The notes beneath the pieces are model-generated. The model was not told the origin of the DNA. It did no database searches and worked only from the letters and a program-made list of their open reading frames with translations. 64,000 nt of DNA from Tilletia caries (lineage: Eukaryota; Basidiomycota; Exobasidiomycetes; Tilletiales; Tilletiaceae). The stretch lies in the NCBI GenBank assembly GCA_032718865.1, contig JALUTQ010000020.1, forward strand, positions 434,001 through 498,000, in the 5' to 3' direction. The first letter of the stretch is position 1; the number at the start of each line of letters is the position of its first letter. Positions 7,917 through 11,422 of this stretch are shown piece by piece. The position numbers were made by a program, and so were the translations under genes.

Positions 7917-9401
7917 ATGCTGACCCCCGCACGATCAACAGCAGCAGCAGCAGCCATGCGCACAGCAGCGAGGAGGTATGCAACCGCAGCCGCAGCCGCA
8001 GCGTCCTCCTCCTCATCAGCAAAGGCATCGCCCATCGCAAGTCTGCTGCGAACAAGCCCAGCAGCAGCCCTCGACACCCCCGGCCTCACCTTCACAAACA
8101 GCACCGGGTCCGCCTCGTCTAACAGGCACCCGCACGCCCCGGCCCAAAAAACGGCCAACATCAACATGTGTACTGTGCGTATCCGTTCCTCCCCCTCCCA
8201 GCCACTGTCCATCGTCCGCAACGTATCAGCAGCCATCGTCGCCCCATCGTCCCTGTCTCTGTCTCCGTCTCTGTCTCTGTCCTCGTCCCGCCATCAACCG
8301 TCCCTACGCTCCTTCTCAACCTCTACCTCGTCAAGAGCAACACCAGCCACAGCCCCCTCCGCCGCTTCGTCTTCAGCAATTGCCGCTCCTCTGCCCCCGC
8401 TCAAGAAGGTCCGGAAAACATACAGCCCAGATCGCAAGTACCCACAGCGCAAGACCTTCCTCTACAATGCCTACGCCCGCCTGCTCTCCTCCTCCAATCT
8501 CCTCGTCTTGCTCCAATACGGAAACTTGACAGTAGCCGAGTGGAACAAGCTCCGGGCCGACCTTGCAGCTGTGCCCCTCCCAGCCGGTTCTCACCCTGGC
8601 ACACCCCGGGCTGGCATCGTCGCCGTTCGCGCTGCGCTCCTTTCCGCATTGCTCAAGTCCCACCCTAACAAGCAAGTGCAAGAGCTCTCCCACGCGTGTT
8701 CGGGTCCACTTGCCTTCCTCTACTTCCCCACCGCCGCACTCGTCAGCTCCGTCGCGTCCGAGCGAAAGTCGCAGCAGGGCTCTGACGACAGTGCGTCCCC
8801 AGATGCGAAGAAGGAAGCAAGTTCTCCTGCCCAACAGGAAGATGCGCCGCCCACCATTGACGACATCGACCCTCGATACGTCGAAAAGGTGCTCGTCGTC
8901 CTCGACCGCGCCTTTGGAGGAAAAGCCGTCCCTGCCCCACCCAGGGATCTGGACCCCTTCTCACCCGCAGCAACAGCAGGCAACAACTCCGGCCTGCTGG
9001 GCAACCCACGTCTACTCCCCCTCGGCGCCCTCTTCTACCCTGCCCGAGCCGTCCAGCCAGCAGCCAGCAGCGCAGACGGTGACAAGCCGAGTACTCCACA
9101 GCCCGCGTCCTCTGCCATCCCAGCCGGACTCGCACCCGTGCCGGAGTCGGAACAACCCCCGACCCGACTCCTGCCTGTGCTCTCCCTCCGCGCCATTGCA
9201 TCCCACTTGCCGGACATCCACACCCTCCGGGCCCAGATGGTCGGCTTGCTCGGCGCCCCTGCCCAAAGCCTCGTCGGCGTCCTCAGCAGCGCGGGTGGGG
9301 CGGGACTGGTCAGGGTGCTCAAGGGCTATGTTGCCACACTCGAGAAGGAGGGCGAGGGCTCGTCTCCTTCAAAGAAGGAGGATGGTGCGGAGCAGAAGTG
9401 A
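7917..9401 (+). CDS. Mitochondrial large-subunit ribosomal protein uL10m, nested in BCKDHB
   Basis: One uninterrupted frame runs from the BCKDHB start codon through exon 1 and its donor site into intron 1, ending at TGA 9399-9401 (494 codons). Only three methionines precede the ribosomal domain: 7917, 7956 and 8166. The last lies 9 bases before the BCKDHB donor. If used, it gives a 411-residue protein with its own Arg/Ser-rich presequence containing LRSFSTS, a typical matrix-processing context. The domain starts around 8419 with YPQRKTFLYNAYARLL and LLVLLQYGNLT, as in fungal uL10m (yeast Mrpl11). The C-terminal half is Ala/Pro-rich and ends in a charged tail. Assignment to uL10m is by pattern recognition. 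Expression by intron retention, an internal promoter or an internal start is inference. Confidence 0.75.
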   Translation: MLTPARSTAAAAAMRTAARRYATAAAAAASSSSSAKASPIASLLRTSPAAALDTPGLTFTNSTGSASSNRHPHAPAQKTANINMCTVRIRSSPSQPLSIVRNVSAAIVAPSSLSLSPSLSLSSSRHQPSLRSFSTSTSSRATPATAPSAASSSAIAAPLPPLKKVRKTYSPDRKYPQRKTFLYNAYARLLSSSNLLVLLQYGNLTVAEWNKLRADLAAVPLPAGSHPGTPRAGIVAVRAALLSALLKSHPNKQVQELSHACSGPLAFLYFPTAALVSSVASERKSQQGSDDSASPDAKKEASSPAQQEDAPPTIDDIDPRYVEKVLVVLDRAFGGKAVPAPPRDLDPFSPAATAGNNSGLLGNPRLLPLGALFYPARAVQPAASSADGDKPSTPQPASSAIPAGLAPVPESEQPPTRLLPVLSLRAIASHLPDIHTLRAQMVGLLGAPAQSLVGVLSSAGGAGLVRVLKGYVATLEKEGEGSSPSKKEDGAEQK

Positions 9402-11422
9402 AAAATGCTCACTTTTGCCGTCGGACCACCATCGGAACGCCGCATATAGGTCTGGCCTGGCATGGCCTCGTCCACCCTTAAAAAAGTCCCAGGGACCTAG
9501 AATAGCAGCCCCCATCCATCTTCGGAAGGGGGCGGCAACCCACATCTCGGATGATCGAAATCGAACCCCGCGCAACGAAAACGCTCGCATTTCCCCCTTT
9601 GTGAACTTTTTTTCGACCGCCGGTGGGATTCAACACACTGGCGACGATGGCTGCTACTGCGTCCCTCTCTCCCTCTCCCTCTCCCTCTCTTCGTCTGCCC
9701 TCCGCATGGTTTCTCACTGACCGCTTGAACTCATGATCTCTTTCCTTTTGAACTGCTCCATCCTTTTTTCGGACTCGCTTCCTTTTGTGCGCATACAGGC
9801 TATCAGGGATGCTCAAGCTCACGCATTGAGCGCGGATCAGTCGACGTGCATTTTTGGTATGTGCACATGCTTCGGTGGACGCCCGCTCTGTAAACAGCAA
9901 CTCGATTCAGGCGGACTGAACTTCTGTACATCTATACTCTATGCAGGCGAGGACGTAGCCTTCGGAGGCGTATTCCGCGCGACGATGGGTTTGGCTGAGG
10001 AGTTTGGTATGCATGCACCAAGAGGGAGTATAATAGTTGAGGCGCATATAATTTTGACACCCCCTTTTTCTGTTCCTCTCGACGACCGGACAGGCCGTGA
10101 GCGCGTCTTCAATGTACGTCGATAACGCTTCCGGGAGGTGATCAGTGCACGCAACAGTACACTGACGATCTCCTTGTATCCCTGTGAACAGACGCCTCTC
10201 ACCGAGCAGGGCATTGTAGGCTTTGGAATTGGAATGGCCGACATGGGTCATACCGCTGTGGCCGAGCTGCAATTTGCCGACTACATTTTCCCAGGTAAGC
10301 AAAGGAAAGGCGAAGTGGGCTGATGCTCTTGGACTGTTCTCTGATTGTTGGATGGGATTTACAATCTGTGACACAGGCTATGATCAGATCGTCAATGAGG
10401 CAGCCAAGTATAACTACCGGTCGGGGGGTACGTTCTCGGCGGGCAAGCTGACGATTCGAAGCCCTTGCATGAGCGTTGGTCGTGAGTGTTCCCTGTCCGA
10501 AGTATGTCTCCAGCCGACAAACCAGTGGGACTGGGACTGAACCTCCTCTGCGTCTCCCATACCAAACTCCAAACCGGATCTCAGACGGCGGTCACTACCA
10601 CTCGCAGAGTGTCGAGCAATTCTTCATGCCCGTCCCCGGACTGAAGGTAGTCATCCCGCGCTCGCCCCTCCAAGCCAAAGGTCTCCTCCTAAGCTCCATC
10701 CGGGACCCGAACCCAGTAATCTTCCTAGAGCCCAAGATCCTGTACCGCTCCTCGGTGGAGCACGTGCCCGAGGACGACTTCACCCTGCCGCTGTCGAGTG
10801 CGGAGACGGTCGTCGAGGGCGCGGATGTGACGTTGCTATCGTGGGGGGCACCGCTGTACTCGTGTGCGCAGGCGATGGAGATGTTGAGGAATCCGGGCGT
10901 TGGGGTTGCTAAGCATGTTCCGCAGTCGATTAGGGATGCTAAAGTGGAGCTGATTGATCTACGGACTATCTTGCCATGGGATCGTGAAGGTGAGTCATCT
11001 TTCCCCTTCTCCTTCTTCCTTTCCCCCCCCCCCTGTGGCTTAGACAGGTTGAGTCTGACTTTTCCCCTTTGATGGTTTTTTTCCCTTTGCGACGCCAGCG
11101 ATCGTGAAGAGCGTGAACAAGACGCAGCGGATCGTGATCGTGCACGAGGCCCCCGTGACAGCAGGCGTAGGTGCCGAGATTGGAGCCCACATCCAGGAGC
11201 GCTGCTTCCTCCGTCTCGAGGCACCTGTATGCCGGATCGGAGGCTGGGATACGCCCTTCCCTCTGCACGAGGCGTTCTATAAGCCGGAGGCGGTCCGGAT
11301 TCTGGATGGGGTACGTTTTTTTTTTTCCTTCGACTTTGCTTTGTTCGATTGACAGGGGGTGCTTATGTTTTTTTTTTTTTTTTTTGGTCCTTATGCAGCT
11401 TGTTCGCACGCTCACGTACTGA
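7917..11422 (+). CDS. BCKDHB: Branched-chain 2-oxoacid dehydrogenase E1 subunit beta
   Basis: Nine exons: 7917-8174, 9799-9856, 9947-10006, 10094-10113, 10192-10294, 10377-10481, 10585-10989, 11099-11310, 11399-11422. They total 414 codons plus stop. Exon 1 is an Ala/Ser/Arg-rich mitochondrial presequence ending NINMCT; exon 2 continues AIRDAQAHAL, so the join recreates the family's conserved N(M/L)CTAI block. Later hallmarks: GEDVAFGGVFRATMGLAEEFG, FNTPLTEQGIVGFGIGMA, EIQFADYIFP-like QFADYIFP, VGHGGHYHSQS, KVVIPRSP, LEPKILYR, DLRTILPWD, HEAPVTAG. It forms the alpha2-beta2 decarboxylase of valine, leucine and isoleucine catabolism in the matrix. Odd: intron 1 is 1,624 nt while the others are about 70-120 nt, and it holds a complete uL10m coding region. 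Exon 4 is a 20-nt micro-exon. Confidence 0.95.

What the first reader, a model, noticed from the sequence alone, without database searches (positions are those of the whole stretch)
7917..9798. Mitochondrial ribosomal protein uL10m encoded in the first intron of BCKDHB, in frame with a shared first exon
Seen: the 86-codon exon 1 of BCKDHB ends NINMCT and splices to AIRDAQAHAL, rebuilding a conserved BCKDHB block, so exon 1 is fixed independently. Without that splice, the same frame runs on for 408 codons and encodes a uL10m-like protein ending at 9401, wholly inside the 1,624-nt intron. Between 8168 and the ribosomal domain there is no other ATG, so uL10m must start in BCKDHB exon 1 (7917, 7956 or 8166). 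Two unrelated matrix proteins thus share a promoter and possibly a targeting sequence, chosen by splicing versus retention plus polyadenylation. Known precedent: the plant rps14 gene nested in an sdhB intron with a shared presequence. I know of no fungal case with these partners.
Basis: partly seen in the sequence, partly recalled or inferred. Interest (0 to 1): 0.92.

Follow-up and report, generated by a model that had tools for sequence, protein, structure and literature searches.

The report
Mitoribosomal gene nested in BCKDHB intron
In a smut-type fungus, the gene for a mitochondrial ribosome protein sits inside the first intron of a metabolic enzyme gene and seems to borrow that gene's first exon as its own start, and predicted proteins from other smut fungi show the same junction, so one gene appears to make two unrelated mitochondrial proteins.

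Summary
A 9-exon BCKDHB gene (7917-11422) reads cleanly, all introns GT-AG. Intron 1 (8175-9798, 1,624 nt; the other seven are 78-109 nt) holds a 408-codon stop-free extension of exon 1 that encodes uL10m: Neurospora uL10m is the best PDB match (1.6e-6 single sequence; 3.4e-25 profile). The only in-frame ATGs before the ribosomal domain lie in exon 1, and no second copy was found in this assembly. New here: eight other predicted proteins (Tilletia indica, T. horrida, Pseudozyma flocculosa, Parajaminaea phylloscopi, three unnamed) carry the same junction. In 9 of 9 (window included) the 75 residues up to NM(C/Y)(T/S) match BCKDHB N-termini of other fungi; in 0 of 9 do the next 75. The junction spans two smut classes. 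Best reading: one promoter and exon 1; splicing intron 1 gives BCKDHB, retaining it gives uL10m. Retention, 3' end, start codon and import were not testable: no RNA data, and BCKDHB of the other species was not seen. The kind is known (grass sdh2-rps14); partners, kingdom, apparent plain retention and depth differ.

The parts
7917..8174 (+). Shared exon 1: BCKDHB presequence and first residues of the mature enzyme (..NINMCT); also the only source of an AUG start for uL10m before its domain (7917, 7956 or 8166)
8175..9798 (+). BCKDHB intron 1 (1,624 nt, GTGCGT..ATACAG) that houses uL10m
8175..8429 (+). Linker coded by the retained intron (residues 87-171): starts with the donor read as Val-Arg, nearly free of acidic residues, contains RSFST; 60/85 residues identical in T. 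indica
8430..9398 (+). uL10m (mitochondrial ribosomal protein L10) conserved part (residues 172-494); stop codon TGA 9399-9401
   Evidence: model of 8418-9398:
9402..9798 (+). Rest of intron 1 after the uL10m stop: presumed uL10m 3' UTR and poly(A) site region (inferred)
   Evidence: no AATAAA-type hexamer among the patterns tried; one run of six A at 9480
9799..11422 (+). BCKDHB exons 2-9 (9799-9856, 9947-10006, 10094-10113, 10192-10294, 10377-10481, 10585-10989, 11099-11310, 11399-11422)

Best explanation
This is one transcription unit with two protein outputs. Transcription starts upstream of 7917. If intron 1 is spliced, the mRNA encodes BCKDHB, the E1-beta subunit of the branched-chain 2-oxo acid dehydrogenase of the mitochondrial matrix. 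If intron 1 is not spliced, the same reading frame runs through the donor site (GTG CGT read as Val-Arg) and encodes uL10m, the mitoribosome stalk-base protein, ending at 9399-9401; that mRNA most likely ends in the 397 nt left of the intron. uL10m starts in exon 1, most likely at 7917 or 7956, and so uses the BCKDHB presequence; a second presequence-like stretch in the retained intron may be its final cleavage region. Shown: gene structure, frame, protein identities, lack of another AUG before the domain, no second copy found, and the same exon-1/uL10m junction in predicted proteins of other smut fungi. Inferred: shared promoter, retention rather than alternative splicing, 3' end, start codon, import and cleavage.
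For: Spliced BCKDHB complete and closest to BCKDHB among solved chains. Intronic ORF is uL10m: Neurospora uL10m 1.6e-6 by single sequence, 3.4e-25 by profile, with further uL10m and bacterial L10 chains; the same chain is the best Foldseek match, 1.9e-4. No in-frame ATG between 8166 and 9237. One match only in the 38.1-Mb assembly with the window protein, and with P0006 the uL10m part matches only this place; the two PF00466 matches elsewhere read as cytosolic P0 and MRT4 (recalled features). Exon 1 matched at one place. All 8 of 8 non-window homologues contain NM(C/Y)(T/S) and then uL10m. The 75 residues up to that motif match BCKDHB N-termini in 9 of 9 proteins, the next 75 in 0 of 9. In 7 of 9 proteins the first Met after the motif lies inside the L10 domain. 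The linker is conserved as protein: 60/85, 45/85 and 20/49 identical in three other Tilletia records. Retention is the commonest alternative splicing class in Ustilago maydis ESTs, 114 of 193 events (PMC2219887, passages).
Against: No RNA or peptide evidence. PF00466 falls below its cut-off for the window protein and for 5 of 8 homologues, and the structure model is poor (mean pLDDT 57). All homologues are predicted proteins, and both homologue searches scored only the roughly 8,000 best candidates. No Ustilaginomycotina BCKDHB was recognised among the 120 listed of 508 matches, so sharing, as opposed to a duplicated presequence, is shown only in the window. Two homologue models (P0005, P0010) jump from NMCT to a later point, as if spliced there. 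P0007 has an internal Met 26 residues after the motif, before the domain. In-frame alternative acceptors exist at 8405 and 8408. The donor is not visibly weak: two other introns of the gene begin GTACGT. The presequence-like character from the motif's Met is not uniform: net charge over 40 residues is 0 to +5 and acidic residues 0 to 3 among the eight homologues.
Confidence: 0.77

Rival explanations
1. Shared exon 1 but alternative splicing rather than retention: the exon 1 donor (8174) joins an alternative acceptor inside the intron (such as 8405 or 8408), as in grass sdh2-rps14, removing the low-complexity linker.
For: In-frame acceptors with pyrimidine-rich tracts at 8405 and 8408; the P0005 and P0010 models skip sequence right after NMCT; grasses do this (PMC1543663, passages).
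Against: The linker is conserved as protein in Tilletia (60/85 and 45/85 identical, less in P0005: 20/49) and an RSFST motif recurs in P0001, P0003 and distant P0007, unexpected for a removed intron. The P0010 model loses conserved domain residues, so it is probably a prediction error.
Confidence: 0.15
2. Internal promoter: uL10m has its own transcript starting inside intron 1, with a non-AUG start, and the open frame back into exon 1 is a by-product of C-rich sequence.
For: A pyrimidine-rich tract at about 8240-8330 (by eye; repeat) could mark a start site; the linker is presequence-like by itself in the window; the first 81 codons being open is not rare by composition (0.05 to 0.25).
Against: No in-frame ATG until 9237 here, and none before the domain in 7 of 9 proteins. 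Six of 8 homologue models read straight from the motif through Val-Arg or Val-Gly into uL10m and the other two skip forward in frame, though such records are what gene prediction would favour.
Confidence: 0.08
3. Sub-variant of the best reading, not exclusive of it: start at the last exon-1 ATG (8166). uL10m then shares only Met-Cys-Thr with BCKDHB and carries its own presequence in the intron; shared promoter region, but not a shared targeting peptide.
For: From M84 the window sequence is acid-free over 40 residues (charge +3, moment 0.43, against medians +4 and 0.44 for 115 BCKDHB N-termini and -1 and 0.35 for 721 internal Met) and RSFST follows.
Against: A scanning ribosome would first meet ATGs at 7917, 7956 and out-of-frame 7978, whose ORF overlaps 8166, so a downstream transcription start is needed. 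In several homologues the same stretch has acidic residues (P0006 2, P0007 1, P0009 2, P0010 3).
Confidence: 0.2

Closest known systems
Grass nuclear sdh2-rps14 (rice, maize, wheat)
   Same: Mitochondrial ribosomal protein gene inside an intron of a mitochondrial enzyme gene; first exon and its targeting peptide used for both (PMC1543663, abstract and passages).
   Different: Grasses use alternative splicing to join exon 1 to rps14, after a mitochondrion-to-nucleus transfer roughly 80 million years ago. Here: fungus, BCKDHB and uL10m, apparently plain read-through of the donor, probably of Triassic age or older; a transfer from mitochondrial DNA was not tested.
Fungal SKI7/HBS1 and PTC7
   Same: One fungal gene, two functional proteins by splicing choice; PTC7 by intron retention (PMC3597508, abstract and introduction).
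   Different: There the isoforms are variants of one protein family; here they are two unrelated proteins.
Cholinergic gene locus (VAChT nested in the first intron of ChAT; recalled, no call)
   Same: Unrelated protein ORF in the first intron of another gene with a shared first exon and promoter.
   Different: The shared exon is non-coding there (recalled); here it supplies the start codon and probably the targeting peptide.
Polycistronic transcripts of Agaricomycetes
   Same: Several proteins from one basidiomycete transcript (PMC4503453, abstract).
   Different: Tandem genes in one RNA, each also transcribed alone; not nested and not in frame with a shared exon.

Membership tests
uL10m (mitochondrial ribosomal protein L10) | Sequence similarity to proven uL10m chains | tested here: met
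   6ywe_f 1.6e-6 single sequence; 3.4e-25 with 9-sequence profile, plus 8uxa and 8ux4
uL10m (mitochondrial ribosomal protein L10) | Pfam PF00466 above gathering score | tested here: not met
   Window 19.2 bits against 22.8; met by P0006, P0007 and P0008, not by P0003, P0004, P0005, P0009, P0010. One model's threshold, so not taken as exclusion
uL10m (mitochondrial ribosomal protein L10) | L10 fold | tested here: inconclusive
   Best Foldseek matches are uL10m and L10 chains, 1.9e-4 and 1.1e-3, but mean pLDDT is 57
uL10m (mitochondrial ribosomal protein L10) | Present in the mitoribosome | not testable with these tools
   needs proteomics
BCKDHB (E1 beta, branched-chain 2-oxo acid dehydrogenase) | Transket_pyr and Transketolase_C domains; closer to BCKDHB than to PDHB | tested here: met
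   3.2e-33 and 9.4e-28; BCKDHB chain 1dtw_B 6.8e-117, against 1.5e-45 for the best chain named mitochondrial PDHB and 6.4e-77 (1ik6_A) and 1.7e-71 (3duf_B) for other chains named pyruvate dehydrogenase
sdh2-rps14 type shared-exon nested gene | Ribosomal protein ORF wholly within an intron of a mitochondrial enzyme gene, same strand, in frame with exon 1 | tested here: met
sdh2-rps14 type shared-exon nested gene | Nested ORF lacks its own start codon | tested here: met
   window; 7 of 9 proteins, one exception (P0007), one undetermined (P0010):
sdh2-rps14 type shared-exon nested gene | Two mRNAs from one promoter | not testable with these tools
   no RNA data held
sdh2-rps14 type shared-exon nested gene | Shared N-terminal peptide directs import of both proteins | not testable with these tools
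   the first 40 residues from 7917 have charge +5 and no acidic residue, but moment 0.37 is below the median 0.44 of 115 BCKDHB N-termini; import not tested

The most novel reading that the evidence does not exclude
A zero-sum switch of Triassic age or older: every pre-mRNA from this promoter becomes either the branched-chain amino acid oxidation enzyme or the mitoribosome stalk protein, so intron-1 splicing efficiency sets the ratio between amino acid oxidation and mitochondrial translation capacity across smut fungi; in Ustilaginales and Microstromatales an aldo/keto reductase reads in frame into the same exon, making a three-protein locus.
Probability: 0.22. Interest if true: 0.87.

Novelty: new variant of a known kind. 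Interest (0 to 1): 0.73.

Why it matters
Two unrelated mitochondrial proteins, both expected to be important, would depend on one promoter and one splicing decision, and the junction appears in two classes of smut fungi (classes dated to the Triassic in PMC4738420, passages). Most described fungal intron retention gives a non-functional unspliced mRNA (PMC3597508, introduction); here the retained form would be the only source found of a core ribosomal protein. It makes a testable case of splicing that balances metabolism and mitochondrial translation, and it suggests that automatic annotation can give exon 1 to only one of the two genes.

Tried and rejected
A second uL10m gene: searched with the window protein, with P0006 and with PF00466; not found. 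PF00466 is weak evidence here because the nested gene itself did not ring. Wrong BCKDHB structure or PDHB: rejected. A bacterial-style L10 leader or other known RNA element: no Rfam match at gathering score in the window; with a relaxed threshold over 7700-9900 only two matches, both lncRNA families far below their gathering scores. Branch-point pattern CTRAY within 80 nt of the 3' splice site: absent in intron 1 but also in 4 of 7 other introns, so uninformative. Absence of in-frame ATG as a statistical argument: weak in itself (0.54 to 0.91 by chance per linker); it matters as anatomy, not as odds. Third-position G+C was not decisive for the linker, which resembles exon 1. Direct comparison of BCKDHB and uL10m N-termini within other species failed: the BCKDHB search listed 120 of 508 matches with no recognised Ustilaginomycotina record besides the window's own P0002, and its length filter (0.55 to 1.75 times 414 aa) would drop fusions above about 724 aa. 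The homologue searches scored only 7,995 and 7,992 candidates, so a missing species (Ustilago maydis, for one) means nothing. One search used all 119 of the records other than P0002 (P0011-P0129); they had been picked by similarity to window residues 38-137, so the window's own row there is partly circular, and its E-values are for 119 sequences. DNA of relatives was out of reach: the genome search states that this genome has no relatives held. Literature: ten searches, of which 42, 43 and 65 had other aims, listed no paper on this pair; only the listed rows (2 to 20 per search) were seen, as titles and abstract starts, apart from five papers opened (PMC1543663 abstract and passages; PMC2219887 passages; PMC3597508 abstract and introduction; PMC4503453 abstract; PMC4738420 passages).
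Full report
The gene. Exon 1 (7917-8174) plus eight further exons to 11422 give a 1,245-nt reading frame without internal stop, with all eight introns GT-AG. The 414-aa product carries the two E1-beta Pfam domains above cut-off. It aligns with a solved BCKDHB chain (1dtw_B, human by recall) from residue 78, i.e. from the last nine residues of exon 1 onward, at 6.8e-117; the best chain named mitochondrial PDHB gives 1.5e-45, and other chains named pyruvate dehydrogenase reach 6.4e-77 and 1.7e-71. 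Exon 1 is therefore fixed by BCKDHB alone. In the whole assembly the only other E1-beta-like matches are weak ones on contig C34.

The nested frame. Intron 1 is 1,624 nt, the other seven 78-109 nt. Without splicing, the exon 1 frame runs 408 codons further, to a TGA at 9399-9401. A stretch of that length has a chance of about 4e-7 at window composition, but 1.3e-4 at its own composition, and the first 81 codons alone are unremarkable (0.05 to 0.25), so length is not the main argument. Protein conservation is: against T. indica, 70/86 identical in exon 1, 60/85 in the linker and 255/311 in the domain part; against the two T. horrida records the linker has 45/85 and 20/49.

Identity of the nested protein. 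Pfam PF00466 is the only family found, at E 0.0013 and 19.2 bits, below the cut-off of 22.8; 3 of 8 homologues pass that cut-off. The window protein alone finds Neurospora uL10m at 1.6e-6. A profile of nine sequences finds it at 3.4e-25, two further uL10m chains at 2.6e-13 and 4.7e-11, and bacterial L10. An AlphaFold2 model of 8418-9398 is poor overall (mean pLDDT 57; residues 11-100 average 71-87 per block of ten), yet its best Foldseek match is the same Neurospora chain, 1.9e-4, followed by L10 proteins at 1.1e-3 and weaker. In this genome a six-frame search with the window protein finds no second copy, and with P0006 the uL10m part matches only this place. PF00466 rings at two other places that I read, from recalled features, as cytosolic P0 and MRT4; the nested gene itself did not ring there, so that family search alone would not exclude a diverged second copy.

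Where can uL10m start? In-frame ATGs are 7917, 7956 and 8166, all in exon 1, then 9237 inside the protein. Among nine proteins (window and eight homologues) the first Met after the NM(C/Y)(T/S) motif lies inside the L10 domain in 7; P0007 has one 26 residues after the motif, before the domain; P0010 cannot be judged because its model lacks the domain start.

Relatives. Two searches, each capped at about 8,000 scored candidates, gave eight proteins besides the window's own record P0002, which begins at ATG 7956: P0003 (T. indica), P0004 and P0005 (T. horrida), P0006 (Pseudozyma flocculosa), P0010 (Parajaminaea phylloscopi) and three without names (P0007-P0009). All 8 of 8 contain the motif followed by uL10m sequence. 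After it come Val-Arg in five, Val-Gly in P0009, and something else in P0005 and P0010, whose models appear to splice there. The test that matters is. I cut each protein at the motif and searched the 75 residues before and after it against 119 BCKDHB-type records of other fungi. The part before matched in 9 of 9 (number of matching records at E<0.01: window 17, P0003 53, P0004 37, P0005 17, P0006 105, P0007 111, P0008 83, P0009 116, P0010 58; best E 3.5e-12, for a set of 119); the part after matched in 0 of 9. The window row is partly circular because the 119 records were chosen by similarity to window residues 38-137. P. flocculosa is in Ustilaginomycetes, Tilletia and Parajaminaea in two orders of Exobasidiomycetes; those classes are dated to the Triassic in PMC4738420 (passages). 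Simplest reading: the junction was there in their common ancestor.

Limits of that inference. These are predicted proteins. I did not see genomic DNA of the other species, nor their BCKDHB: no Ustilaginomycotina BCKDHB was recognised among the 120 listed of 508 matches, and none of the 119 fetched records has NMCT. In those species a copied presequence is therefore not formally excluded; in the window the search found exon 1 at one place only.

Mechanism. Retention fits best because the linker is conserved as protein and, in the window, has presequence character: no acidic residue in the first 40 residues from Met84, charge +3, moment 0.43, near the medians of 115 BCKDHB N-termini (+4, 0.44) and unlike 721 internal Met (-1, 0.35); among the eight homologues the same stretch varies, charge 0 to +5 and 0 to 3 acidic residues. 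An RSFST motif stands in the linkers of the window, T. indica and the distant P0007. uL10m may thus carry two presequence-like stretches, one from exon 1 (RRYAT) and one from the intron. Alternative acceptors in frame at 8405 and 8408 keep the grass-like splicing model alive. The donor GTGCGT is not obviously weak, as two other introns of the gene begin GTACGT. No canonical poly(A) hexamer was seen in 9396-9798 among the patterns tried, which says little in fungi. In Ustilago maydis ESTs retention accounts for 114 of 193 alternative splicing events (PMC2219887, passages), so the raw process is common in this group.

Comparison. Grass sdh2-rps14 is the closest known case: ribosomal protein gene in an enzyme gene's intron, shared first exon and targeting peptide, about 80 million years old, made by alternative splicing (PMC1543663). 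In fungi, SKI7/HBS1 and PTC7 make two related proteins from one gene (PMC3597508). I found no report of the BCKDHB/uL10m pair in the rows listed by ten searches of the held library; that library lacks most subscription journals. Hence a new variant of a known kind.

Verdict. Observation confirmed; interpretation supported in its structural part, untested in its RNA part; extended by the finding that the junction is shared across smut fungi.

Noticed in passing
proteins P0006, P0008, P0009, P0010: In these four of the eight homologue records an aldo/keto reductase is joined in frame upstream of the BCKDHB exon 1 part, with similar connecting sequence (LEPRN..) and, in P0010, no Met between VDQT and the KM just before the motif. 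Could be a real fusion, a three-protein locus, or chained gene prediction. In the window's genome the best-matching reductase lies on another contig (C25) and its open frame ends at VDQLRL.
   Followed up: partly
window 7978-8529 (+), frame +1 relative to exon 1: A 183-aa ORF starts at an ATG inside exon 1 in another frame and overlaps ATG 8166; it would hinder scanning to 8166. No conservation test made.
   Followed up: no
window 8247-8289: Short pyrimidine-rich tandem repeat (GTCTCT) in the linker, the only tandem repeat listed within the nested ORF; could act as a splicing or start-site signal.
   Followed up: no
window 6504-7676 (-): Start of a divergent DEAD/DEAH helicase gene (Mtr4/Ski2-like by recalled features; PF00270 3e-9) faces the BCKDHB/uL10m promoter across a short interval.
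   Followed up: partly
window 13483-13539 and 13948-14007: Two short tandem arrays about 400 bp apart whose units (TGATACGGCCACCGCCCTTT, 20 nt, and AGGGCGGTGGCCGTATCAAAA, 21 nt) are reverse complements of each other apart from one extra A.
   Followed up: no
window 2407-2491: Perfect tandem array of CTTCTGAC, 10.6 copies.
   Followed up: no
No Ustilaginomycotina BCKDHB was recognised among the 120 listed of 508 matches, perhaps because annotation gives exon 1 to uL10m and leaves BCKDHB models short, or because of the length filter.
   Followed up: partly
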